DNA of 33,372 bases from Ectothiorhodospiraceae bacterium (GTDB lineage: Bacteria > Bacteroidota > Ignavibacteria > SZUA-365 > GCA-2699105), in NCBI GenBank assembly GCA_002699105.1, contig PABJ01000138.1, forward strand, positions 1-33,372, given 5' to 3'. The position numbers were made by a program, and so were the translations under genes. Positions within the stretch are counted from its first letter, which is position 1, and the number at the start of each line of letters is the position of its first letter. Below, in pieces: positions 21,154 through 33,372 of this stretch. The notes below the pieces were generated by a model. It did not search any database. It worked only from the letters and a program-made list of their open reading frames with translations, and was not told where the DNA came from.

Positions 21154-22191
21154 ATGAAGGTGACATTAAGAGAGCGGACAGTGAAATCTGGAAGGACACA
21201 ACTCTACTTCGATATCTACTATGGCGATGGAAAGAGGAAAACGAAGGCATTCGGGACACTATCCGGCAATAGACAGCAAGACAAAGAAGCAAGGCGGATC
21301 GCAGGTGCAGCTCGTTCAAAGCTCGAAATAGAATTATTGAATGAATCGCATGGCTTCCACAAACCTTTCCAGTTAGAGCGCAACTTCTTCGAATTCTTCG
21401 ATCAAGTCATGGACAATAAAAAGGGGAACTATGGATGCTGGAAATCGACTCGCTTTCACCTAGTAAATTTTGTCGGTAAGGAGAGCCTTCATTTTAAAAC
21501 TATCACGCCTCAATGGTTAGAGTCCCTCAAATCTTATCTCTTATCACAAGTAGCTCCAAATACAGCAAGAGGGTACTACGCTGCGGTACGCGAAACTCTC
21601 AAGCGGGCAGTTCGTGAGGAAATAATCCCTGACAATCCGAGCGACAAGATCGACAACATCAAACCGCGTAACTCATATCGCCCTTATCTGACTCTCGAAG
21701 AATTAAACGAACTAGCGGTAGCGCCATGTGGTGATCCAGAAGTAGAACGAGCATTTCTTTTTTCTTGTCTCACTGGATTGAGGTTGGGAGACGTCAGGCG
21801 TCTGCAATGGAAGCACGTTCACATGAACAAGATCGAAATAGTTCAGAAAAAGACCTCCGAACCGATCTACCTATCGTTAAACGATCAGGCCATTGAATTA
21901 CTCGGTCAACGAGGTGACAATGAAGAGCGGATATTCGCCATACCGAGCGATTCACATCTATCTTTAATCATGCGGACCTGGGCCTCCGGTACGGGCATAA
22001 ACAAAAAGATTACATTTCACACTGCGAGACACACATTTGCCACTCTTGCTCTAACTAATGGAGTGGAGATTTATACGGTTTCCAAACTCTTAGGCCATTC
22101 CAGACTTGAGACCACTCAAGTGTATGCGAAGATTATCGACGCGAAGAAGGAGGACGCTGTCAAGATGTTACCTAAGATCAAGGTGAAGTGA
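21154..22191 (+). CDS. Tyrosine recombinase/integrase
   Basis: This 345-residue site-specific recombinase has an N-terminal arm-binding domain (MKVTLRERTVKSGRTQLYFD), a SAM-like core-binding domain at about 75-165, and a C-terminal catalytic domain with Arg210 (TGLRLGDVRRL), His289 and Arg292 (HTARHTF), His315 (LLGHSRLET) and the nucleophile Tyr324 (QVYAKI). The layout is the one common in integrases of Bacteroidota elements. AGGAGG at 21143-21148 gives a good ribosome binding site. It probably integrates or excises the surrounding element. All residues needed for catalysis are present. Confidence 0.92.
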   Translation: MKVTLRERTVKSGRTQLYFDIYYGDGKRKTKAFGTLSGNRQQDKEARRIAGAARSKLEIELLNESHGFHKPFQLERNFFEFFDQVMDNKKGNYGCWKSTRFHLVNFVGKESLHFKTITPQWLESLKSYLLSQVAPNTARGYYAAVRETLKRAVREEIIPDNPSDKIDNIKPRNSYRPYLTLEELNELAVAPCGDPEVERAFLFSCLTGLRLGDVRRLQWKHVHMNKIEIVQKKTSEPIYLSLNDQAIELLGQRGDNEERIFAIPSDSHLSLIMRTWASGTGINKKITFHTARHTFATLALTNGVEIYTVSKLLGHSRLETTQVYAKIIDAKKEDAVKMLPKIKVK

Positions 22192-22194
22192 AAC

Positions 22195-22635
22195 GTGTTT
22201 CTATTTACCTGCTACACAGGATTGAGGATTGGAGTTGTGCGCTCGTTAACATGGAATATGGTGTACGGGAATCAGATCGAGATAGCTCAGGAGAATCCAA
22301 AGGACCCAGTATATTTACCACTTTCCGACACAGCGCGTACGTATATGGGCAAACCAGGAATGGACGACAATCCAGTTTTTATATTACTTAGTAATTCGCA
22401 CTTATCGGTAATTTTAAAAACGTGGAGTTCGCCAGTTGGAATGAAGAAGAAGGTGACCTTCCATGTAGCTCGTCACACGTTTGCAACACTGGCTCTCTCA
22501 AGCGGTGCTGATATATACACAGTCTCCAAGCTACTCGTTCATTCAAGACTCGAAACGATACAAGTATATACGAAGATCATTGACTATAATAAAGTCGAAA
22601 CGGTAAATATGTTGCCTGATATTGGGATAGGTTAA
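22195..22635 (+). pseudogene. Truncated tyrosine recombinase, catalytic domain only
   Basis: The 146-residue frame, opening with GTG, is homologous to residues about 203-345 of the recombinase just upstream, beginning at FLFTCYTGLRIG and running to its end. The N-terminal arm-binding and core-binding domains are absent. Homology begins within a few bases of the upstream stop codon, which suggests that a deletion fused a second recombinase to the end of the first. All catalytic residues are retained (Arg11, His90, Arg93, His116, Tyr125), although the usual Gly before the second His is Val. The two copies are clearly diverged, so this is not a fresh tandem duplication. No ribosome binding site is seen; it is probably a remnant. 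Confidence 0.75.
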
Positions 22636-22647
22636 CTAAATGAGGGT

Positions 22648-23556
22648 ATGATAGCTATGAATGGATTACCAGATGATTATTATCACGAAGATCAGTTTCG
22701 AGGACACTGCAACAAACTGATGGATTCACTGCGACAAGAGTATAAGGAAGAGCTTGACAAAGTAGGTTCATCTGAAATAACGCCCGAACGCGCTGGAGAT
22801 ATTTTTAGGGTAGCCTGGGAGAAGTTCGACAATGAAATGACTCCTTTCTTGTTTTATCGCGCTATCACTGTACCAAAGAATGTGATGAGACATCTTAATA
22901 TTGACGATCAGGAACTTTCTGATAGTAGATATGCAGCATTATATAAGTCAAAACAATGGTGGGATGCCGTTGAAGAAATTTCAATAAATTCAATCCCCCC
23001 ACCTGGTTCTTTAATAGACCTAATCGCACAACCATTGCAGTTGTTTTCAAATGTAGAAAAAATCCAATACGTCGATTATGTTAAAACCATAGTGGTTCAG
23101 AGGTACTTGGTAGGTGTGGGTAGTTTACAAGATATGTACATGAAAGGGGCCGTTATTGATCCATTTCCTGAATTGATCGATTGGATCAAAGTCAATGCCA
23201 AATATTGGTCCAGATACTCGGAGACTAAATCATCTAACACTGTCTACTCTTATGGTCATTACATCGAGAATGAGTCTGGACGTCGGTTGTTCAACTGGAC
23301 CGCTAAATTAGTCCAATTGGCAAAGGTTCTAGTGGCAATAAAGTATGAAGATGGTTCTGAGTTTGTCTCGGCCTCTTCCGGAGAACTTGCGAGATTGGCA
23401 GAAGTCCGCATCCTCTACCATGGTGATAAGATCAAGGCAAATTCTCTTGAGACATCTATTAAGCGGGTTTTTGATGGATACGAGTCCCCATCTGCCATCC
23501 CAGATGGTGCCGTAGTAGTCATCAAACAAATTTTGCTAAACAGCAACAAATCTTAA
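22648..23556 (+). CDS. Hypothetical protein of the integrated element
   Basis: This 302-residue protein is not recognised. It appears soluble: there is no signal peptide or membrane segment. It is rich in Tyr, Ile, Lys and Asp, with a charged N-terminal half (KLMDSLRQEYKEELDKVG), a central hydrophobic stretch (SLIDLIAQPLQLF), and a C-terminal part (GELARLAEVRILYHGDKIKANSLETSIKRVF) that could be a small DNA-binding-like helical domain. ATG codons at 22648 and 22657 are both possible; GAGGG at 22641-22645 is better spaced for the second. It lies where Bacteroidota elements often carry a regulator of excision, but this is only context. Confidence 0.6.
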   Translation: MIAMNGLPDDYYHEDQFRGHCNKLMDSLRQEYKEELDKVGSSEITPERAGDIFRVAWEKFDNEMTPFLFYRAITVPKNVMRHLNIDDQELSDSRYAALYKSKQWWDAVEEISINSIPPPGSLIDLIAQPLQLFSNVEKIQYVDYVKTIVVQRYLVGVGSLQDMYMKGAVIDPFPELIDWIKVNAKYWSRYSETKSSNTVYSYGHYIENESGRRLFNWTAKLVQLAKVLVAIKYEDGSEFVSASSGELARLAEVRILYHGDKIKANSLETSIKRVFDGYESPSAIPDGAVVVIKQILLNSNKS

Positions 23557-23573
23557 TCCCAACAAAATTGGGA
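23557..23573. terminator. Short inverted repeat after the hypothetical gene
   Basis: TCCCAA (23557-23562) and TTGGGA (23568-23573) form a 6-base stem with a CAAAA loop directly after the stop codon. There is no T run, so this is a weak terminator candidate or an operator half of the next gene. Confidence 0.3.
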
Positions 23574-23602
23574 ACAATATTGGTGTAGTTGCTGACCTAC
23601 AT

Positions 23603-23640
23603 TTCCTGCAAGCAAATCATAAGCATGAACAATGCAGGAA
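23603..23640. promoter_or_regulatory. Inverted repeat upstream of the helix-turn-helix gene
   Basis: TTCCTGCA (23603-23610) and TGCAGGAA (23633-23640) are perfect inverted copies separated by 22 bases, ending 10 bases before the start codon of the helix-turn-helix gene. The right arm includes the AGGAA that would serve as its ribosome binding site, so pairing or protein binding here could control its expression. Autoregulation is an inference. Confidence 0.4.
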
Positions 23641-23650
23641 GACATCTCTC

Positions 23651-23947
23651 ATGGAAAACCAACTCAACTCACGGCTCAATGCCATTGAGGAGAAGCTTGA
23701 GGACCTCTCAGCATCACAACGAGACGTGCTGACCTTCCAACAAGCGGCTAAATACCTCGATTTCAGTCCTTCTTTCTTGTACAAACTCACCTCCCAAGGT
23801 AGAATCCCGCATAGTAAGCCGAATGGCAAGCGTATCTACTTCGATCGCCGGGAGCTAGATCGCTGGTTGCTGCAAAATCCCGTGAAAACGCAGGACGAGA
23901 TTGAGGCAGATGCACTTTCCTTCACAAAGTCGGGGAAGCGGAGCTAG
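23651..23947 (+). CDS. Helix-turn-helix protein, MerR/excisionase type
   Basis: This 98-residue protein has an N-terminal coiled-coil-like helix (LNSRLNAIEEKLEDL) and a winged helix-turn-helix of the excisionase (HTH_17) type: LTFQQAAKYLDFSPSFLYKLTSQGRIPHSKPNGKRIYFDRRELDRWL. Such proteins direct excision or regulate genes in integrated elements. It starts at an ATG following AGGAAG and sits just before the replication-initiator-like gene, with an inverted repeat upstream. Family assignment is firm; the specific role is inferred from the neighbours. Confidence 0.85.
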   Translation: MENQLNSRLNAIEEKLEDLSASQRDVLTFQQAAKYLDFSPSFLYKLTSQGRIPHSKPNGKRIYFDRRELDRWLLQNPVKTQDEIEADALSFTKSGKRS

Positions 23948-23999
23948 TATCCTGTGTCCCTTTATTAATAAGTGGGACAAGGATACAGTTTCTGTATCC
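23947..23999. promoter_or_regulatory. Overlapping alternative hairpins before the Rep-like gene
   Basis: GTATCCTGTGTCCC (23947-23960) can pair with GGGACAAGGATAC (23974-23986) around a TATTAATA loop, with one base unpaired. The right arm overlaps GGATACAG (23981-23988), which pairs perfectly with CTGTATCC (23992-23999). The two hairpins share bases 23981-23986 and so exclude each other. The site lies between the stop of the helix-turn-helix gene and the likely start of the Rep-like gene. It could be a replication origin nicked by Rep, an operator, or an attenuator. Confidence 0.5.
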
Positions 24000-24005
24000 G
24001 TACTC

Positions 24006-24941
24006 GTGTACGATACAGTCAAAATAGTGCACTCCAATGGTGAGTACGAGGAGATTCCTGGGCGACTAACAGGCGTTGTAAATCGTCGTGATCAATACGA
24101 TAAGCTACTCTCCTCCATAGGGAATCTAGTCAACCTGGACGTCCGCGTTACTGACAAGCACTGTACTATTCGAGGCTCACTCAGCAGGTTCTATCACGGA
24201 AGCAATCTTTACATTCTATCCAGGCAGGAAACAAAGGCCGCGATTGAGCAGATATCTGCACTCCTGGGTCTCGATATCAGTTATGCCAAATTAACGCGCA
24301 TTGATGTCGCATCAAATCTCATCATGGATCATCCTGTCTCGAGTTACCTCAAGCTTCTTCAATCCATCCCCCGTTACAAGAAGTCGCTCATAGGCCTACC
24401 TGAAAGTCCTAGTCTCTACTTTTCTACCACTCAAAGAAAGCTGCTTTTTTACGATAAAATCCATGAACTCAGGTCTAAAAGAGTATCTGTACCTGCTGAG
24501 TTCAGGGAAGCGAACCTGCTCCGATACGAACTTCGTTTCAATCGTCACCTGCCGCGGCAGTTCTCGGGAAAACGTGTGACGTGCGCTATGTTGTACGATG
24601 AAAGGTTTTACCAAAAGCTCGTTAGCCGTTGGCTTCAGGAGTACAAGAAGATTCGAAAAGCCCGGAAGCCGAAAGTTGGACACAGGGATATCACCGATTG
24701 TCGTGTGTTGAATTCATACCTGGCGACGATTGGATTGGAGAAAGTTGGCGCTGACACGATGCTTGATGATCTTTCTATTCGGCGCAGTAGTGGCCATATC
24801 GGCAAAACGCAGCACTCCCGCCTCAAGTCGAAGATATCGGCTCTCAGGTCGAATGAGGCCCACACAGTAGAGCACGAGCTTGCAAGAGAACTCGATGAGA
24901 AAATGCAAGCAGCAGCAGACTACCTGCATTCGCAGGCGTGA
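24006..24941 (+). CDS. Phage/plasmid replication initiator-like protein (gene II/X family-like)
   Basis: The 311-residue form begins at a GTG (MYDTVKIV). The pattern YAKLTRIDVASNL, then LYFSTTQRKLLFYDKIHEL, then LLRYELRFNRHLPRQF followed by MLYDERFYQKLVSRWLQEYKKI is the one seen in phage/plasmid replication proteins of the filamentous-phage gene II/X group, which nick an origin to start rolling-circle replication. The assignment is from pattern memory and is moderate. The frame is open upstream to an ATG at 23910 inside the helix-turn-helix gene; the GTG at 24006 fits family N-termini better but has no clear ribosome binding site. The hairpin cluster just upstream is a natural origin candidate. 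Confidence 0.6.
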   Translation: MYDTVKIVHSNGEYEEIPGRLTGVVNRRDQYDKLLSSIGNLVNLDVRVTDKHCTIRGSLSRFYHGSNLYILSRQETKAAIEQISALLGLDISYAKLTRIDVASNLIMDHPVSSYLKLLQSIPRYKKSLIGLPESPSLYFSTTQRKLLFYDKIHELRSKRVSVPAEFREANLLRYELRFNRHLPRQFSGKRVTCAMLYDERFYQKLVSRWLQEYKKIRKARKPKVGHRDITDCRVLNSYLATIGLEKVGADTMLDDLSIRRSSGHIGKTQHSRLKSKISALRSNEAHTVEHELARELDEKMQAAADYLHSQA

Positions 24942-25533
24942 GGTACCTAATTTCGATGACGAACGTTTGCTGGGACTCAAAAACCGCGCGACAACTGACT
25001 TCTCGTTGCAATCCCAACATTTTTCGATTGAGGACGAGATTGCATTCAAAGTTAGGTTCTTGTAGGTTCTCTCTCTCAGCCCTTGCAATCGACATTACAT
25101 CCGTAACTGGGGCTGGGATGACAGTTTACGCATACAATTCTCCACAGTTAAATTGCCCGCCACTGTAGGCGTATACATCATCACAGTTGCATGATTGCAG
25201 GCTGTGATAAGTAGCTACTCCATTCGGGTGTCATTCGGCTCCCCACGTTTCTTGAAAGATGTGTCGTTTCGCCCGTTTATCCTCTTTGGCATTCAATGCG
25301 ATACTACAAGCTGTCGTCTTCCCCTCCTGGCTCAGTACTCCAATTGCGATACCCCGACCGCGATATCGATTCGGGACTGTGATCGTTCCCTCTTGTACCG
25401 ATGGTTCGTTTTTTACGTGCCAAGTGTCACAGATATAGGCTCCCAGTTCTCTTATTATAAGGAGACCTTGTCTCTTATTTAGCCACTTCCGATCTTGAAT
25501 TGCTCTCACTCCATCAACAGTTCTCAATGCTCT
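24942..25533. other. 592-base intergenic region upstream of cse1
   Basis: No gene is supported here. In an ordinary type I-E locus cas3 often lies at this position; no helicase or HD-domain sequence is visible on either strand. Short open frames exist on both strands (a 98-codon one at 25231-25527 on the minus strand and one of similar size on the plus strand) but neither has a recognisable motif. The right border of the integrated element and the promoter of the Cascade operon should both lie in this stretch. A TTATTATAAGG at 25451-25461 could contain a -10 box, without a clear -35 box. Confidence 0.5.
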
Positions 25534-26955
25534 ATGAACTACAATCTACTCGATGAACCCTGGATCCCCGTGCTATTTAGGGACGGGCGCTATGAGCGTC
25601 TCGGGATTACCGATACACTCACCAGGGCACATGAAATACGGCAGGTAGCCGCCAGCAACCCAATGGACCGTGTTGCGGTCCTGCGGTTTCTGCTTGCACT
25701 ACTCTACTGGTGCAAGGGCAATCCGCCTCGTGATGCCCAGACACAGCTACATGAACCGCTTCCATCAACCTGGTTCACAGCACTTACAGCACATCGAGGT
25801 GTGTTTGAGTTGTTTGGCAGCGGTAAACGTTTCTACCAATATGGCGGGCTAGGAAAGAAGAAACCGTTATCCGTGAACTCACTCATCCATGAGGTACCGA
25901 CAGGGACGAATATTAACCATTTCCGGCACTCGATCGACGGTGAAGACGGCCTCTGCCCCGCTTGCTGTGCTTTAGGACTCATCCGCCTGCCACTATTCAC
26001 AACCCAGGGAGGTCAGGGTAAAAGGCCCGGAGTGAATTTCAAACCCCCAATCTATCTCATCCCGGCTGGCGATAATCTGGCTGAGACGTTGCGCTTATCC
26101 TGGATGCAGATTAAGAACCTCGGTGCCCCAATATGGAATCGAGACACCTACCACATCCCGATAGACGGTGAAATCTTGTTTTTGGAGGCGCTGACTGCAC
26201 TCCCACGCAGGGTGTGGCTTCGCAATCCGGATATCGAAGACCGGTGCATCTCATGCGGTAGATTCACGGACCTTGTTAGGGAATGCGATTTCGAAGGCGC
26301 CCCGAAAAGGGAGCTACCTAATAGCTGGCAGGACCCGCACGTTGTGTATTTCCTCAATGAGGATGAGATCCGCTCAGCGCGTGCAGATAATACTATGAAG
26401 CCTGGTGGGTTCAGGACCGACCGTCCCTGGTCGAGGCTCATGGAGCGCTTTCTTGGTGCAGAATCCCTTGCCTCCAGAGATACCGATACTCGCTTCCTGA
26501 TCGTCGGCTTCGCATCTGATCAGACGAAATACATCGACGCTTGGGAACGTACATTCACACTACCTGCCAACACCAACAGGATAGCAGCATCCGATGCGAT
26601 AGACAGATGGTCGGCTGCCGGCGCAAGAATGCCGTGGCGGATAAAACATCCATCCCCACAGCGCAAACCATCATCGAACGAAAAGGCTATAATTGGCTCC
26701 ATCCGGCCGCATATAGAACACACAATTTCCTCGAACCTGACAGAGCTTGTTACTTGGGATGACGAATCCTGGAACGAGGCATCCATGGAGTACCGCAAGC
26801 TGATGGAGGGAGTTGCTGAATCACTATCCCCAGGTTACAGTACCGCTGCCGTTCGGCGCCGGGGATACCTGTCTCGCGTATTACCTGATTTGAGCCAGAA
26901 ACAGAACGACGTTTCAGAGACCGAACCGGAGGATGAGGAAGATGCAGATTCTTGA
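25534..26955 (+). CDS. casA: Type I-E Cascade large subunit Cse1 (Cas8e)
   Basis: This 473-residue protein begins MNYNLLDEPWIPVLFRDG, the characteristic Cse1 N-terminus, and ends in an acidic tail. In type I-E Cascade this subunit recognises the PAM, starts DNA unwinding and recruits Cas3. Two Cys groups are visible, C141/C144/C145 (CPACC) and C238/C241 (CISC) with C251, which could together bind zinc. The frame extends to 25495, but the ATG at 25534 matches the family start; no strong ribosome binding site is seen. The end overlaps cse2 by 14 bases. Because no cas3 is present, whether the Cas3 docking surface survives is an open point. Confidence 0.93.
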   Translation: MNYNLLDEPWIPVLFRDGRYERLGITDTLTRAHEIRQVAASNPMDRVAVLRFLLALLYWCKGNPPRDAQTQLHEPLPSTWFTALTAHRGVFELFGSGKRFYQYGGLGKKKPLSVNSLIHEVPTGTNINHFRHSIDGEDGLCPACCALGLIRLPLFTTQGGQGKRPGVNFKPPIYLIPAGDNLAETLRLSWMQIKNLGAPIWNRDTYHIPIDGEILFLEALTALPRRVWLRNPDIEDRCISCGRFTDLVRECDFEGAPKRELPNSWQDPHVVYFLNEDEIRSARADNTMKPGGFRTDRPWSRLMERFLGAESLASRDTDTRFLIVGFASDQTKYIDAWERTFTLPANTNRIAASDAIDRWSAAGARMPWRIKHPSPQRKPSSNEKAIIGSIRPHIEHTISSNLTELVTWDDESWNEASMEYRKLMEGVAESLSPGYSTAAVRRRGYLSRVLPDLSQKQNDVSETEPEDEEDADS

Positions 26956-27508
26956 ACTTGAAACTCGAGGCACTACGGGATTCGTCGGAAAACTTACGGC
27001 CCTAAAGGAGGGCGATCTTGCCGTACTTCGCGGATTGGCAAATCAGCCGCTTGACACGAGCCTGGAAGGATTTGATCTCTTTACCGGATTATGGTGGGGG
27101 TTGCGGCAGGCGGATAAATGGACCCCAGGCCGAGAGGTATCGTGGCTGGCATGTAAACTCTATGCGCAGAACCCACAACCTCAGCAAGACGGAGCGGCAC
27201 TCCCATTCCTTCTGCGCCAATATATGATGAGTCAATATGGAAATGATTTGGATGGGAGAGACCGGTTCTCGCAGAAATTGGACCGTCTACTCGCATCCTC
27301 GTTTGCAGAACTGGAATCCCAATTAACATGGGCAATCCGACTCGTACGCAGGGACGAACCAAAAGCGAAAAAAAACCCAGAGAGCAATGTCGGCGATCCC
27401 CGGGGTTTCGATTGGGTACATCTCATCAACAGCCTTTCTCACTGGGATAGAAGCACTACACGCACTAAATGGGCAGAACAATTTCTCAATATTCATACCG
27501 GAGTATAG
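26942..27508 (+). CDS. casB: Type I-E Cascade small subunit Cse2 (Cas11e)
   Basis: This 188-residue, mainly helical protein occupies the casB position. It shows FDLFTGLWWGLRQ, a typical Cse2 pattern of Arg/Trp-rich helices, RFSQKLDRLLASSFAELESQL, and WVHLINSLSHWDRS near the C-terminus, which resembles the Cse2 LL--L--W ending. Two copies normally line the belly of Cascade and hold the target strands. The ATG at 26942 was chosen because GGAGG at 26928-26932 is nine bases upstream; an ATG at 26933 abuts that site. It overlaps cse1 and is followed by cas7 after two bases. Confidence 0.9.
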   Translation: MQILELETRGTTGFVGKLTALKEGDLAVLRGLANQPLDTSLEGFDLFTGLWWGLRQADKWTPGREVSWLACKLYAQNPQPQQDGAALPFLLRQYMMSQYGNDLDGRDRFSQKLDRLLASSFAELESQLTWAIRLVRRDEPKAKKNPESNVGDPRGFDWVHLINSLSHWDRSTTRTKWAEQFLNIHTGV

Positions 27509-27510
27509 CT

Positions 27511-28689
27511 ATGTACATCACAATCCACATGATCCAAAATCACAGTCCGGCAAATCTCAATAGGGACGATCTCGGTGCCCCCAAGACCTGCTACTTCGGT
27601 GGTGCTTTGCGGTCTCGCATATCGAGTCAGTGTTTGAAACGCAGCATCCGGCTCAGCAGTGAATTCCGCGACTTGCTTGGTGGTATACGGACGCGCAGGC
27701 TGGCCGATATGCTTGTACAAGAAATTGAAGAAGCAGACATGAAGTCCGGCACCCGCAAAAAAGCCGTGAAGGTTCTAAAAAAATGCGGATTCGATACAAA
27801 AGAAAAAGCAGGCGAGGAGGGGCATGATCATACAGAGATGCTGATTTACACAACTCGCAATGCAATCCGGGAAATGGCGGAGATCCTCAAAAACGCGAAC
27901 GGCGAGAGCGATGATGAGTTAGCAAAGAAATTCGGCGAGCTTATAGCCGAGAGGACAGCGGTTCCCGATATGGCACTGAGTGGAAGAATGCTCGAGCCTG
28001 GCAAGGCTGGCAAAGAAGTCTGGAAAAACAGGAACACAACAGTTGAAGCGGCTCTCCAGGTGGCGCATGCCCTCTCAACACATGAAGCGCGTCCGGAAGT
28101 AGACTATTACGTGGCAGCTGACGATGTGCGCGAACACGCCGAGGATGCGGGTGCTGGCTATGTTGACGAGGCCATGTACAACTCGGCATGCTTCTACAAG
28201 TACTTCTCCATTAACTGGGAGCAATTGGTGGGCAATCTGCAGGATAAGAAGGAACTCGCTGCGCATACAGTGGGCACATTCATTCTGGGTGCAGCCTTTG
28301 CGAATCCGAGCGGCAAGCAAAACAGCTTCGCAGCACACAATTTGCCGGATGGTATCGTGGTCGAACTCCGCAAGTCCCCCGTGAGCTACGCAAATGCCTT
28401 TGCACGGCCAGTTGAGAGCCGTGGTGAGCGAGGCGTCATTGAACAGAGTATTGCGCAGCTGGGGAGCTATATGAACGATCTGGATGCAGGATACGGAGGA
28501 CCGGAGCATCGGTTGTGGTTCTCTCCGAATGGCCGGCATACATTGAATGAAGGCGAGTCTTCATTCCAGAGTGAAGCGCTACGCTCCATTGACGATCTTA
28601 TCACCACTACGCTTACTAGACTGGGCTTCGAATGGGAAAAAGTACGTCAAGTGAAGGTCGATGCTGACGCGCTAAAGGCTGAATTATGA
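27511..28689 (+). CDS. casC: Type I-E Cascade backbone subunit Cas7 (Cse4)
   Basis: This 392-residue RAMP protein begins MYITIHMIQNHSPANLNRDDLGAPKTCYFGG followed by RSRISSQCLKRSIR, the classic Cas7e opening whose RNA-binding fold coats the crRNA spacer. AADDVREHAEDAGAGYVDEAMYNSACFYKYFSINW and KQNSFAAHNLPDGIVVELR are further Cas7e hallmarks. Six copies form the Cascade backbone in the model system. The ATG at 27511 follows GGAG and lies directly after the cse2 stop. The TGA overlaps the cas5 start (ATGA). It is somewhat longer than the E. coli protein (363 residues), with a Lys-rich insertion around residues 85-110. Confidence 0.95.
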   Translation: MYITIHMIQNHSPANLNRDDLGAPKTCYFGGALRSRISSQCLKRSIRLSSEFRDLLGGIRTRRLADMLVQEIEEADMKSGTRKKAVKVLKKCGFDTKEKAGEEGHDHTEMLIYTTRNAIREMAEILKNANGESDDELAKKFGELIAERTAVPDMALSGRMLEPGKAGKEVWKNRNTTVEAALQVAHALSTHEARPEVDYYVAADDVREHAEDAGAGYVDEAMYNSACFYKYFSINWEQLVGNLQDKKELAAHTVGTFILGAAFANPSGKQNSFAAHNLPDGIVVELRKSPVSYANAFARPVESRGERGVIEQSIAQLGSYMNDLDAGYGGPEHRLWFSPNGRHTLNEGESSFQSEALRSIDDLITTTLTRLGFEWEKVRQVKVDADALKAEL

Positions 28690-29852
28690 GTAGGCACACA
28701 CTTTTTCTCAGACTGGAAGGACCGCTCCAGGCGTGGGGTGGCCACGAAGCGAAATTCGTCATACGCAGGTGTGCAGAAGCTCCCACAAAATCAGCCATCA
28801 TTGGGATGCTGCTTGCTGCCAAGGGTATCGACCGGAGCAAAGCAGTAGAGGAAAATTGGCTATCTGAGCTATCACAGCTCTCGATGGGTGTGAGGATCGA
28901 TAGACCTGGTGTGCGCTGGTGGGATTATCACACGGTTGGAGCAGATATAGGTACCCACTCTGCGCAGGGCAAGGTGAAACGGACCGCCGCTACAGGTGAG
29001 ATCGAGACGTTTGTATCCCGAAGGGAATACCTCTGCGACGCGAGCTTTCTCGTTGCTCTGCAGGGTGATGCAGATCTTATGGAAAAACTCGCTACTGCGC
29101 TGGCTAATCCTGAATGGACGCCCTTTCTCGGGCGTAAATCCTGTCCACCAAGTGTACCGCTCCTAATGCGTGACAAAAACCCCTCTGAGCACGACTCACT
29201 CGAAGCAGCACTCCGTTCTCTGCCTTGGCAACCACGCATGCAGGGAGACAAGACACCGGATTCTTTGCATTGCATACTGGACTGGAAACCATCCGAGAAT
29301 GAACCAAACGCACCGCCTGATGCAGAAATCTGGTACGATATACCTCTCAGCTTCGATCCGCCTTCACATGCTCCACGGTTCATAGAGCGAATAGAGCTCG
29401 CTGTTGGAGGTCAGGACGGTGTCCCGGTTGCAGGTGTTCCGCTGGTGAGCAAAACACCCTCTCCCCCCCGACCGCGTGCAGACTACAGGAATTCAGAGTA
29501 CCAGACTGCCAGGCAGAACCGACTTGCACACGACCAATATCTCTGTGTGTTTTGCAAGTCACCTGCAAATACCGTCCAACACATCACGTATAGGAATGCC
29601 GGTGGCGCCGAACAGCAGGAGGACCTGCGTGCCCTTTGCCGCCTATGCCATGATGCAGTAACGATGATCGAGTACGGAGAAGGTATGGGTATGGATCGTG
29701 TGGACCCGAAAGACCCGAGATGGAGGAAGCAGATAATCGATAACCGAGCAAATATTGTTGAGCATCGTTCGCGTGAGAAAAAACGCCGCATGATGATCAA
29801 GGCAGACCCGGAGAGAGCAGCCAGATTCAAAGACGAAGAGGAGGACGACTGA
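28686..29852 (+). CDS. casD: Cas5e fused to a C-terminal HNH nuclease (Cas5-HNH)
   Basis: Residues 1-240 are a Cas5e: LFLRLEGPLQAWGGH at the start, APTKSAIIGMLLAA, VSRREYLCDASFLVAL and TPFLGRKSCPPSVPL. Ordinary Cas5e ends near here. This protein continues through a Pro-rich linker (about 241-265, with PSPPRPR) into an HNH endonuclease fold: C287 and C290, VQHITY with the likely general base H299, GGAEQQEDLRALC, and C318, C321, H322. The four Cys should bind a structural zinc. A basic, then acidic tail of about 60 residues follows. Cas5 caps the crRNA 5' handle and touches Cse1 near the PAM. With no cas3 in the window, the HNH domain is the likely target-DNA nuclease. The reading frame is continuous across the fusion. 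The residue before H299 is Gln298, where HNH enzymes usually have Asp or His. Confidence 0.93.
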   Translation: MSRHTLFLRLEGPLQAWGGHEAKFVIRRCAEAPTKSAIIGMLLAAKGIDRSKAVEENWLSELSQLSMGVRIDRPGVRWWDYHTVGADIGTHSAQGKVKRTAATGEIETFVSRREYLCDASFLVALQGDADLMEKLATALANPEWTPFLGRKSCPPSVPLLMRDKNPSEHDSLEAALRSLPWQPRMQGDKTPDSLHCILDWKPSENEPNAPPDAEIWYDIPLSFDPPSHAPRFIERIELAVGGQDGVPVAGVPLVSKTPSPPRPRADYRNSEYQTARQNRLAHDQYLCVFCKSPANTVQHITYRNAGGAEQQEDLRALCRLCHDAVTMIEYGEGMGMDRVDPKDPRWRKQIIDNRANIVEHRSREKKRRMMIKADPERAARFKDEEEDD

Positions 29853-30685
29853 TGTACTATTCGTATCTCATCATCGACACTGGCGGCAACCCCGATAGAC
29901 CGAGACCGGGACGGAACTGGATAAAAGATGTCTATGCCGTGCATCGCCGCCTATGTATGGGCTTCCCGTCTGATCAGAAACGCCAGTCCGACCCGCAATT
30001 CCTGGATGAGTTTGATATGGTTGGTTTTACATCGAACAGCCGTAGGCCGGACCTCCACAACGATACTCCTCGTGGGAAATCAAATCGTCCAAATTTCCTG
30101 TTCAGGATCGAAAACACGATCAGAGGTAACGAAACCCAGGCTGCAATCGTGGTTCGCTCTGAGAAGCCTCCAGACTGGGAATACGCATTTTGTAATGCTC
30201 GGACACTGCTCGCAAATGTTCCAATAATGGAGCCGCGTGTGTATAACCCCGAATTCAGGGTAGGGCAGAAACTTCAATACCGGATTCGCATGAATCTGAG
30301 TAAAAAAAGCAAGCTTGTCGCTGCTGAAAACGGCGAGAAGAATGAACTCTCTAAACCCAAACGAATGGCATTCACCTGGGAGCCTGACCGAAGCCGCGAT
30401 GAGCAAATCCAGGACTGGTTTGTGATGAAGACAGCAGGGAAGGGGCTGAATGTTCTTTCCTGTGAAGTAGAACAAATTGGCTGGGTACGCGGCTGGAAGC
30501 CTGAAGCCCGGCAAAAGGTGAACGGCAATTTTGAGAAGCACAGGCATCGTCTGCAGTACCGATCTGCAATGCTAAACGGTACGCTGGAAGTGACCAATCC
30601 CGAGGAATTCCACACGGCACTTACTGCCGGTATCGGCTCTGCGAAAGCATTCGGCTTTGGCTTGCTCTCAGTGCGTGAAGTATAG
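29852..30685 (+). CDS. casE: Type I-E crRNA endoribonuclease Cas6e (Cse3)
   Basis: This 277-residue ferredoxin-like RAMP nuclease cuts the repeat hairpin to make mature crRNAs and stays bound to the 3' handle. VYAVHRRLCMGFP places the catalytic histidine at residue 31, and the C-terminal glycine-rich loop GIGSAKAFGFG (260-270) is the Cas6e signature. NFLFRIENT and WVRGWKPEA lie between. The start overlaps the cas5-HNH stop (TGATG). A hairpin terminator candidate follows 20 bases after the stop, which separates the Cascade genes from the mini-array and cas1-cas2. Confidence 0.94.
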   Translation: MYYSYLIIDTGGNPDRPRPGRNWIKDVYAVHRRLCMGFPSDQKRQSDPQFLDEFDMVGFTSNSRRPDLHNDTPRGKSNRPNFLFRIENTIRGNETQAAIVVRSEKPPDWEYAFCNARTLLANVPIMEPRVYNPEFRVGQKLQYRIRMNLSKKSKLVAAENGEKNELSKPKRMAFTWEPDRSRDEQIQDWFVMKTAGKGLNVLSCEVEQIGWVRGWKPEARQKVNGNFEKHRHRLQYRSAMLNGTLEVTNPEEFHTALTAGIGSAKAFGFGLLSVREV

Positions 30686-30705
30686 CACGATGTTTCCCAC
30701 ACACT

Positions 30706-30733
30706 CGGGACGGTGCGCGTCCCGGCGATTTTT
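30706..30733 (+). terminator. Terminator candidate after cas6e
   Basis: CGGGAC (30706-30711) pairs with GTCCCG (30719-30724) around a 7-base loop, followed after GCGA by five T (30729-30733). The gap between stem and T run makes it imperfect, but it lies just after the Cascade operon and could end that transcript before the mini-array. Confidence 0.5.
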
Positions 30734-30767
30734 GACGTATTAGCTAACCATCTGGATCGACTCCGCG

Positions 30768-30857
30768 ATTCTCCCCACGCCCGTGGGGCTGTACCTCCAA
30801 GTGAAGAGGTTCAACTTGAAGCGGTGAATTCTTCCCCACCCTTGTGGGGCCCTATCC
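30768..30857 (+). CRISPR. One-spacer mini-array between cas6e and cas1
   Basis: Bases 30768-30795 match the 28-base repeat of the main array exactly. A 32-base spacer follows (30796-30827), then a degenerate repeat (30828-30857) that keeps ATTC, CCCCAC and GTGGGG but has one added T near its start, CCTT for the usual GCCC before GTGGGG, and a changed 3' end. A degenerate last repeat is typical of an array's distal end. The 40 bases before the first repeat do not resemble the leader of the main array. The spacer is one base shorter than the main-array norm and contains TTCAACTTGAA, an internal palindrome. It may be an old remnant or produce a dedicated crRNA-like regulatory RNA. Confidence 0.85.
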
Positions 30858-30886
30858 CATTCTAAATTCAAAACAGGAAGTTCGAC

Positions 30887-31876
30887 ATGAAAGAACATGA
30901 AGTGCCTGTAATGCCGTTAAAATCCCGAATATCAACGTTCACCGTCGAGCGTGGTGCCGTTGAACGTGAAGGGACTGCTTTGATCGTCCAGGATGCAACA
31001 GGAGTACGGGCACAAGTGCCAGTAGGCGCAATCGCCGCACTCATGCTAGAGCCGGGTACGACGATTACCCATGAGGCAATCAAGCTATGTGCGGAACATA
31101 AAACACTCATTTTATGGACTGGTGAAGCTGGAGTACGTATCTATTCTGCAGGTCAAGAGGGAGCGGCACATACCTACCGTCTTCTACGGCAAGCCCGGCT
31201 TGCACTCAGCGAGAAATCCCAGCTTGCTGTTGCCAGAGAAATGTACAGGTTACGATTCCGTGAAGAAGCCCCGTTGAAGCGATCCATTGAGCAATTGCGA
31301 GGGATGGAGGGTGCGCGCGTTCGCAATCGCTATCGTGAGTTGAGTCTTGAGTATGGAATCGAATGGAACGGGAGAAACTACGACCGAAAAGACTGGTGGG
31401 CTGGAGATCCCATTAACCGCGCGATCTCAGCAGCGAATAGTTGCCTTTATGGAATTTGTCATGCCGCAATACTCATCGCGGGGTACAGTGCAGCCATCGG
31501 ATTTGTTCACACTGGATACCCGCTAGCCTTTGTTCACGATATTGCTGATTTATACAAGATGGATATCGCCGTGCCCTTGGCATTCCGTCTCACCGCCGAG
31601 GATGAACATCATATCAGCGCAAAAGTGCGCCATGCACTCCGTGACGAGTTCCGCTCGACTGGATTGCTAGAAAAGCTCATCCCTCAAATCGAATCTGTTC
31701 TGAACGCAGGCGAGGAGGAAGGAACGCCACCTCCAGAGATAGCCGGCTCCCGAAGGGATGAAGACTTGGAGCCCGAGGATTTCCCATGGCTGCTCCACCT
31801 TGATCCCGAACAGCGATACGGTGGATATCCTCAAAGTGGTCAGGCGGGTAGTAATGCTCCAGATAAAGAGGTGTGA
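30887..31876 (+). CDS. cas1: CRISPR spacer integrase Cas1 (type I-E)
   Basis: This 329-residue integrase, with Cas2, inserts new spacers at the leader end. The metal-binding residues fall at E141 (MEGARVRNRYRELS), H208 (GFVHTGYPLAF) and D221 (HDIADLYK), the same numbering as the well-studied E. coli protein. AGGAAG precedes the ATG at a suitable distance. A Pro- and Glu-rich C-terminal tail after about residue 285 is normal for Cas1e in kind, if a little long. It follows the mini-array by 29 bases and is followed by cas2 after two bases. Confidence 0.96.
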   Translation: MKEHEVPVMPLKSRISTFTVERGAVEREGTALIVQDATGVRAQVPVGAIAALMLEPGTTITHEAIKLCAEHKTLILWTGEAGVRIYSAGQEGAAHTYRLLRQARLALSEKSQLAVAREMYRLRFREEAPLKRSIEQLRGMEGARVRNRYRELSLEYGIEWNGRNYDRKDWWAGDPINRAISAANSCLYGICHAAILIAGYSAAIGFVHTGYPLAFVHDIADLYKMDIAVPLAFRLTAEDEHHISAKVRHALRDEFRSTGLLEKLIPQIESVLNAGEEEGTPPPEIAGSRRDEDLEPEDFPWLLHLDPEQRYGGYPQSGQAGSNAPDKEV

Positions 31877-31878
31877 AC

Positions 31879-32166
31879 ATGGTAGTTTATTCGGTCGAAT
31901 GCGCACCGCAGCGGCTTCGAGGTGTACTTTCACGTTACTGCCTGGAGATAAGGGCGGGACTGTTTGTTGGACGTCTAGACGCGCGAATGCGCGAGCTATT
32001 GTGGGAAAAGATCCTCGATCTTGCCAAAGAGGATACAAATGCGGTAATGATCTGGCGGACTCCGACCGAACAGGGTTACAGCATGCGCCAGTATGGCGAA
32101 GACGCCCGCAATTGCGTTGAGATGGATGGGATTTGGCTTATCGAATACGAGGGGGCAAGGTCCTGA
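31879..32166 (+). CDS. cas2: Cas2 (type I-E)
   Basis: This 95-residue protein begins MVVYSVECAPQRLRGVLSRYCLEIRAGLFVGRLDARMRELLW, the standard Cas2e pattern (P-RLRG-L--W--E---G--VG). It forms the central dimer of the Cas1-Cas2 integrase. The ATG at 31879 follows AGAGG; a GTG at 31873 inside the cas1 end is a less likely start. It lies immediately before the leader, as in most type I-E loci. No nuclease domain is fused to it. Confidence 0.94.
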   Translation: MVVYSVECAPQRLRGVLSRYCLEIRAGLFVGRLDARMRELLWEKILDLAKEDTNAVMIWRTPTEQGYSMRQYGEDARNCVEMDGIWLIEYEGARS

Positions 32167-32241
32167 GTAGCATTGTGCGCTACCAGCTCGTTCGTTGAGC
32201 AATTCTTTTGGAAAAATGGCGAATATGACGATATTTCAAGT
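32167..32241 (+). promoter_or_regulatory. Leader of the main CRISPR array
   Basis: The 75 bases between the cas2 stop and the first repeat should hold the array promoter and the signals for leader-end integration. They include a short inverted pair GTAGC/GCTAC (32167-32171 and 32179-32183) and an A/T-rich stretch TTCTTTTGGAAAAATGG that could bend or bind a factor. No clear promoter boxes are seen. Confidence 0.6.
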
Positions 32242-33372
32242 ATTCTCCCCACGCCCGTGGGGCTGTACCGTAATACTTGATGACGGGGTTGGTGCGGAGC
32301 TCATTCTCCCCACGCCCGTGGGGCTGTACCCTTCAAACCCCGCCGCCTGGCCCCGAAGGACGAATTCTCCCCACGCCCGTGGGGCTGTACCTCGTTATGC
32401 GGATACTTGCCGACGACTACGGTTATTCTCCCCACGCCCGTGGGGCTGTACCCTCATTGCTTAGCTCGATGGGCGATCTGCAGGCGATTCTCCCCACGCC
32501 CGTGGGGCTGTACCGACTTCGCTGAGCTTGCTGGAGCCACGATCTAAATTCTCCCCACGCCCGTGGGGCTGTACCGCAGAAGATCGAGACGCACGCGAAG
32601 GCCCTGGCATTCTCCCCACGCCCGTGGGGCTGTACCCAGCCCCCAGTGCTGGTACCAGAGCGAGCCGTCATTCTCCCCACGCCCGTGGGGCTGTACCCAA
32701 CAGGAGTGATCATGCGCACGATACTCACAAATTCTCCCCACGCCCGTGGGGCTGTACCTTCCATCATCTGCACAGGAGGCGTATGAGATGCATTCTCCCC
32801 ACGCCCGTGGGGCTGTACCCACGGAGGTACGAGATCGTGAGATATAGCATACATTCTCCCCACGCCCGTGGGGCTGTACCCTCTAAGCCATAGCGGATGT
32901 TCTTTGTTTATCAATTCTCCCCACGCCCGTGGGGCTGTACCCCACTTGCGCTATGAATTTCTCTGCATGGACCGATTCTCCCCACGCCCGTGGGGCTGTA
33001 CCCGCAACTACAAACGGCTCACGCGCGAACTCAAAATTCTCCCCACGCCCGTGGGGCTGTACCGGAAAATCGAGGCGATGTCTCCGAGGACTATTCATTC
33101 TCCCCACGCCCGTGGGGCTGTACCTACGTGCAAGAGTTCGAGGATGAAAGCGGCAACATTCTCCCCACGCCCGTGGGGCTGTACCGGATTATAGGTGTTA
33201 CGACTTCGCTGGCGGTCGATTCTCCCCACGCCCGTGGGGCTGTACCTTCGCTCCGCCGCCGTGATTCGATATAGCTTTTATTCTCCCCACGCCCGTGGGG
33301 CTGTACCCATTCGCGTATTGCTTTCGATATGCCCGCCGCTATTCTCCCCACGCCCGTGGGGCTGTACCCACA
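32242..33372 (+). CRISPR. Type I-E CRISPR array, at least 19 repeats, cut by the window edge
   Basis: Nineteen repeats of 28 bases start at 32242 and recur every 61 bases, the last at 33341-33368; four bases of the next spacer follow. All repeats look identical. They begin ATTCTCCCC and end GGGGCTGTACC, with the hairpin arms CCCCACG and CGTGGGG, like other I-E repeats and in the same orientation. Spacers are 33 bases except the fourth (32453-32486), which is 34. The array lies directly after cas2 and its leader, so new spacers should enter at the left end. No spacer was seen to match elsewhere in the window. Confidence 0.98.

What the first reader, a model, noticed from the sequence alone, without database searches (positions are those of the whole stretch)
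24942..33372. Type I-E locus without cas3
All of cse1, cse2, cas7, cas5, cas6e, cas1 and cas2 are present in canonical order, but the usual cas3 position upstream of cse1 holds 592 bases without a gene and then an integrated element. With a nuclease fused to Cas5, loss of Cas3 would be functional rather than decay. The clean reading frames, identical repeats and intact Cas1 residues argue that the system is active.
Basis: partly seen in the sequence, partly recalled or inferred. Interest (0 to 1): 0.75.

Follow-up and report, generated by a model that had tools for sequence, protein, structure and literature searches.

The report
Cas3-less CRISPR locus with Cas5-HNH nuclease
This is a bacterial CRISPR immune locus that has no Cas3 shredding enzyme because a cutting domain is built into its Cas5 subunit, a known rare variant (type I-E2), here apparently joined to spacer-capturing genes from an ordinary Cas3-type relative.

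Summary
The window carries cse1, cse2, cas7, cas5-HNH, cas6e, cas1, cas2 and an array, all open, with no cas3. The array reaches the contig end and probably continues on contig C15, where no cas3 follows. The recovered genome (74% complete) holds no Cas3. The window's Cas5-HNH aligns almost end to end with the solved protein (8yb6, E 7e-119). None of 48 related Cas5-HNH loci carries an intact cas3; a plain I-E control does. Three additions are not in the finding. (1) The adaptation module looks exchanged: Cas7 and Cas6e nest among I-E2, but Cas1 and Cas2 pair with a Cas3-containing plain I-E locus (64% and 63% identity) that shares an unusual trait, spacers never beginning with A. (2) An isolated repeat-spacer-degenerate repeat lies between cas6e and cas1; no target was found. 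(3) One I-E2 relative (L046) has a convincing CreR-like autorepressor RNA. Interest is modest: a new, chimeric member of a known kind.

The parts
25534..26955 (+). cse1/cas8e (ATG at 25534; longer frame from TTG 25495)
   Evidence: PF09481 E 7.6e-45; Cas8e
26933..27508 (+). cse2/cas11e
   Evidence: PF09485 E 3.3e-10; Cas11e
27469..28689 (+). cas7e; nests among I-E2 Cas7, sister to Kapabacteria L040
   Evidence: TIGR01869; tree
28686..29852 (+). cas5e fused to C-terminal HNH nuclease; zinc Cys 287, 290, 318, 321 and His 299, 322 conserved
   Evidence: PF09704 and PF01844; PDB 8yb6 E 7.1e-119 over 4-370; conserved columns
29852..30685 (+). cas6e
   Evidence: PF08798 E 4.8e-32; groups with I-E2 Cas6e
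30705..30725 (+). terminator-like stem-loop directly after cas6e (CGATTTTTGA tail)
   Evidence: pattern match only; the number of such matches in the region equals chance
30768..30795 (+). isolated perfect copy of the array repeat
30796..30827 (+). 32-nt spacer-like stretch TCCAAGTGAAGAGGTTCAACTTGAAGCGGTGA; no target found
30828..30857 (+). degenerate repeat; hairpin CCCCAC/GTGGGG intact, loop and 3' end changed
   Evidence: sequence; fold
30887..31876 (+). cas1e; closest relative is in a plain, Cas3-containing I-E locus (L103, 64%); E141, H208, D218 kept
31873..32166 (+). cas2e; closest relative in the same plain I-E locus (63%)
32242..33372 (+). CRISPR array: 19 identical 28-nt repeats ATTCTCCCCACGCCCGTGGGGCTGTACC, 18 complete spacers, cut by the contig end; probably continued by C15 (58 repeats)
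24942..25533 (.). 592-base gap upstream of cse1 without a recognised gene or cas3 remnant

Best explanation
A type I-E2 (Cas5-HNH) CRISPR-Cas locus. Cas6e cuts the pre-crRNA at the repeat hairpins; Cse1, Cse2, Cas7, Cas5-HNH and Cas6e assemble on the crRNA; a full R-loop on a PAM-flanked target lets the HNH domain of Cas5 cut both DNA strands near the PAM-distal end, so no Cas3 is needed (shown for a homologue, inferred here). Cas1-Cas2 acquire spacers. In this locus the adaptation genes were most likely exchanged: effector genes are of I-E2 descent, while cas1-cas2 descend from a plain I-E lineage of the same class, whose Cas1-Cas2 keep C, G or T (never A) as the first spacer base, suggesting acquisition at an AAB-type PAM (inferred). 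The isolated repeat-spacer-degenerate repeat lies in the gap where the two modules meet.
For: Cas5-HNH aligns over residues 4-370 with the solved Cas5-HNH protein, E 7.1e-119, HNH region included; C287, C290, H299, C318, C321 and H322 are near-invariant over 48 relatives and kept here. Cas3-free target cleavage by this family: PMC10910872; named I-E2: PMC12669027. 48 Cas5-HNH loci from many phyla, 35 with at least 1 kb upstream of cse1, none with intact cas3; L045 keeps a 71-aa stretch; the plain I-E locus L075 shows cas3 next to cse1 as positive control. No Cas3 in the recovered genome. Exchange: Cas7 lies inside I-E2 (SH-aLRT 97 with L040), Cas6e likewise, but Cas1 pairs with plain I-E L103 (100/98) inside a clade of otherwise plain rows (100/99), and Cas2 pairs with L103 (SH-aLRT 99). 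AU tests reject keeping window Cas1 with I-E2 Cas1 (p 1.8e-47 on all rows; 0.021 after dropping rows that break the grouping themselves). First spacer base: window plus C15 0 A of 75, L103 0 A of 26; nearly all other I-E2 arrays have G there.
Against: The genome is 74% complete, so Cas3 elsewhere is not excluded, and 13 of 39 genomes searched (including the plain control) carry a cas3 somewhere. The reduced AU test is only moderate (p 0.021). Exchange rests mainly on one close relative (L103), and its direction is inferred. A misassembly in the cas6e-cas1 gap was not excluded. No expression or activity data.
Confidence: 0.93

Rival explanations
1. Decaying canonical I-E: cas3 was lost by insertion of the neighbouring element, and the remaining genes no longer interfere.
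For: An integrated element with integrases lies 592 bases upstream of cse1.
Against: All frames are open and catalytic residues kept; absence of cas3 is shared by all 48 relatives regardless of neighbours; the family is shown to work without Cas3 (PMC10910872); at least 77 identical repeats.
Confidence: 0.03
2. Cas3 is supplied in trans from the unrecovered quarter of the genome.
For: Genome 74% complete; 13 of 39 genomes searched, one of them the plain control, have a cas3 somewhere.
Against: No second cas1 or further repeat array was found apart from C15; most Cas5-HNH genomes searched lack a cas3 above cut-off; homologues cut without it.
Confidence: 0.08
3. The isolated repeat-spacer-degenerate repeat (30768-30857) makes a CreR/CreA-like regulatory crRNA that guides HNH-Cascade to a promoter without cutting, as proposed here for L046.
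For: Same architecture as the L046 element; the 5' repeat is perfect, and in the degenerate repeat all differences fall outside the 12 stem positions.
Against: No seed match with a plausible PAM in the window above chance or in the recovered genome; not present in the other I-E2 cas6e-cas1 gaps. A single-spacer remnant array, possibly left by the module exchange, fits as well.
Confidence: 0.2

Closest known systems
Type I-E2 / Cas5-HNH CRISPR-Cas (Candidatus Cloacimonetes system; PMC10910872, PMC12669027; PDB 8yb6, 8yha)
   Same: Gene set and order, Cas5 with C-terminal HNH, no cas3, 32-33-nt spacers, conserved HNH residues.
   Different: Cas1-Cas2 come from another branch; repeat ends CTGTACC instead of GTGAACCG; first spacer base C, G or T instead of G; extra repeat unit between cas6e and cas1.
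Canonical type I-E
   Same: Cse1, Cse2, Cas7, Cas5, Cas6e, Cas1e, Cas2e and hairpin repeats.
   Different: No Cas3; HNH fused to Cas5.
Type I-F4 (Cas8-HNH)
   Same: HNH built into a Cascade subunit replaces Cas3.
   Different: HNH is in Cas8f, not Cas5; subtype I-F.
CreR / CreA crRNA-like regulatory RNAs (PMC12737573)
   Same: The repeat-spacer-degenerate repeat at 30768-30857 has this shape.
   Different: No target promoter found for it.

Membership tests
Type I-E2 (Cas5-HNH) | Full set of I-E effector genes | tested here: met
Type I-E2 (Cas5-HNH) | HNH nuclease fused to Cas5 with metal and catalytic residues | tested here: met
Type I-E2 (Cas5-HNH) | No cas3 in the locus | tested here: met
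   beyond the array
Type I-E2 (Cas5-HNH) | Effector proteins phylogenetically inside the Cas5-HNH group | tested here: met
   Cas7, Cas6e
Type I-E2 (Cas5-HNH) | Adaptation genes of the same descent as the effector genes (usual, not defining) | tested here: not met
   Cas1, Cas2
Type I-E2 (Cas5-HNH) | crRNA-guided cleavage of both DNA strands without Cas3 | not testable with these tools
   shown for a homologue (PMC10910872)
Canonical type I-E | Cas3 helicase-nuclease | tested here: not met
   absent from locus and recovered genome; genome 74% complete
CreR-type regulatory RNA (element 30768-30857) | Repeat-derived ends around a guide | tested here: met
CreR-type regulatory RNA (element 30768-30857) | Seed match next to a PAM in the cas promoter | tested here: not met

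The most novel reading that the evidence does not exclude
A natural hybrid in which an HNH-Cascade (I-E2) effector works with the repeat and Cas1-Cas2 of a plain I-E lineage that accepts C, G or T at the last PAM position, and in which the solitary repeat unit between the modules yields a crRNA-like RNA that steers the self-cutting Cascade to regulate rather than cut, as the L046 element suggests for I-E2 generally.
Probability: 0.15. Interest if true: 0.6.

Novelty: new member of a known kind. Interest (0 to 1): 0.32.

Why it matters
It confirms from independent sequence that Cas5-HNH loci stably lack Cas3 across many phyla. It also shows that their adaptation module and repeat can be exchanged, with a different crRNA 5' handle and probably a broader PAM, which bears on which guides and PAMs HNH-Cascades can use. 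The CreR-like element in L046 raises a testable question: how a Cascade with a built-in nuclease is used as a repressor without cutting its own promoter.

Tried and rejected
Cas3 by HD and helicase profiles in the own genome: hits are an HD phosphodiesterase, RecG, Mfd, a DEAD-box and an SNF2 helicase. Cas3 remnant in the 592-base gap: none credible. The 98-aa reverse frame 25231-25527, which looked to me like a transposase fragment: no Pfam or NCBIfam match. Orphan spacer as self-targeting guide: best matches no better than shuffled spacers, and the shifted guide gave runs of at most 8; two 11-base seed matches elsewhere in the genome are what chance gives and lack an AAB PAM. Orphan unit conserved in relatives: not found. 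Protospacers for the first 30 array spacers in phage records: none; orphan spacer in IMG/VR: none. A wide scan for handle-plus-seed pairs was swamped by array self-matches and gave nothing usable. The window's repeat ending in CTGTACC occurs in no other of 395 genomes of the phylum and not in IMG/VR.

Full report
What is there. The window is one whole contig (C139) of a draft genome of 3.2 Mb, 74% complete. From 25534 to 32166 it encodes cse1, cse2, cas7, cas5, cas6e, cas1 and cas2 in canonical type I-E order, all open, each recognised by its family models. Cas5 carries an HNH domain at its C-terminus. An array of 19 identical 28-nt repeats follows and is cut by the contig end. Contig C15 opens with 58 identical repeats and is the probable continuation, though adjacency is inferred; after the array it carries other genes and no cas3.

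Is Cas3 really missing? The 592 bases upstream of cse1 hold no recognised gene, and Cas3 sequences find no credible remnant. In the recovered genome the Cas3 HD profile finds only a protein that reads as a membrane HD phosphodiesterase. The cas3 helicase profile finds proteins that read as RecG, Mfd, a DEAD-box helicase and an SNF2-type helicase, all far below the cut-off. A Cas3 in the missing quarter is not excluded.

Comparison with relatives. A scan of one genome per species gave 48 Cas5-HNH loci, spread over many phyla, and one plain Cas5e locus, L075. Thirty-five of the 49 have at least 1 kb upstream of cse1. With thirteen full-length Cas3 genes as queries, none of the 48 showed an intact cas3; L045 retains a 71-residue stretch; L075 has cas3 directly upstream, so the search works. 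Thirteen of 39 genomes searched, L075's among them, carry a cas3 somewhere. Absence of cas3 is therefore a property of the variant, not an accident here.

How it works. The window's Cas5-HNH aligns over residues 4-370 with the protein of PDB 8yb6 and related entries, E 7e-119. Cys287, Cys290, His299, Cys318, Cys321 and His322 are near-invariant in the relatives and kept. For this family, crRNA-guided double-strand cleavage without Cas3, with cuts just outside the PAM-distal end, and collateral single-strand cleavage have been shown (PMC10910872). Structures show HNH held between Cas6 and Cas11 and released by full R-loop formation (PMC11822464). The classification names it I-E2 (PMC12669027). 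That this locus works the same way is inference from homology.

Exchange of the adaptation module. Against columns near-invariant in I-E2 relatives, the window deviates at 3 of 97 in Cas5, 2 of 92 in Cas7 and 1 of 47 in Cse1, but at 8 of 62 in Cas1. The closest Cas1 found is in a genome of the same class (G045, locus L103; 64-65% identity; Cas2 63%), in a plain I-E locus with a 991-residue Cas3, two adjacent cas7 genes and a Cas5 without HNH. Trees agree: Cas7 and Cas6e lie inside I-E2; Cas1 pairs with L103 (100/98) within an otherwise plain clade (100/99), and Cas2 pairs with L103. Tests reject window Cas1 as part of an I-E2 clade (p 1.8e-47, of which part is due to other rows; p 0.021 on a reduced set). 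L040 from Kapabacteria, the window's Cas7 sister, has a Cas1 that pairs with another plain I-E Cas1, so exchange may be recurrent. Shuffling of adaptation modules is a known feature of CRISPR evolution (general knowledge).

A shared trait. In the window and C15, none of 75 spacers begins with A (C 32, G 26, T 17). In L103 none of 26 does (C 13, G 8, T 5). In nearly all other I-E2 arrays this position is G, as expected if it comes from the last base of an AAG-like PAM. The window-L103 Cas1 lineage therefore probably accepts AA followed by C, G or T; this is inferred. The window repeat also ends CTGTACC instead of GTGAACCG, so the crRNA 5' handle differs; this ending was found in no other of 395 genomes of the phylum, nor in IMG/VR.

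The isolated unit. Between cas6e and cas1 lie a perfect repeat (30768-30795), a 32-nt spacer and a degenerate repeat (30828-30857) whose hairpin stem is intact. No other I-E2 locus examined has it there. No target was found in the window or recovered genome. It may be a single-spacer remnant array, possibly left by the exchange, or a regulatory crRNA; I favour the remnant.

By-product. In L046, an I-E2 locus, a repeat-guide-degenerate repeat lies on the minus strand upstream of cse1. Its guide matches 15 of 16 bases, the one mismatch being position 6 (flipped out in type I-E crRNAs), of a site with PAM AAG. The PAM overlaps the TTGACA box of a promoter-like sequence reading towards cse1. L103 has a similar element between cas3 and cse1, with PAM AAC. 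Both look like CreR autorepressors, known in type I and V-A systems (PMC12737573). I have not seen one reported for I-E2, but my literature search was limited to open papers.

Noticed in passing
L046:3179-3300 (I-E2 locus, JAOSKN010000003.1): CreR-like crRNA element on the minus strand upstream of cse1; guide matches 15 of the first 16 bases of a site with PAM AAG overlapping the TTGACA box of a promoter-like sequence. Would be an autorepressor RNA for a Cascade with built-in nuclease.
   Followed up: partly
L103:3436-3620 (G045:C74, plain I-E): CreR-like element between cas3 and cse1: degenerate repeats around a guide whose first 14 bases match, except positions 6 and 12, a site with PAM AAC just downstream of a promoter-like sequence.
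   Followed up: partly
L103:6136-9143: Two adjacent, overlapping cas7 genes, the second with a long proline- and arginine-rich tail of repeated RGRPPKDPNAPPKPKP units.
   Followed up: no
window 32242-33372 and L014 1-3508: None of 75 spacers begins with A, suggesting an AAB-type acquisition PAM; the trait is shared only with L103 among loci examined.
   Followed up: partly
L045:3496-3708: 71-residue Cas3 remnant just upstream of cse1 in an I-E2 locus, a trace of Cas3 loss.
   Followed up: no
L040: Kapabacteria I-E2 locus whose Cas1 pairs with that of a plain I-E locus (L112), a possible second adaptation-module exchange.
   Followed up: no
window 21154-24941: Integrase (345 aa) followed by a second integrase fragment repeating its catalytic half, an HTH gene and a G2P-like replication gene: a small integrated element.
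   Followed up: no
L060:8938-11050: I-E2 locus without cas1 or cas2 in the fetched stretch and with two adjacent arrays whose repeats differ by one base, directly after cas6e.
   Followed up: no
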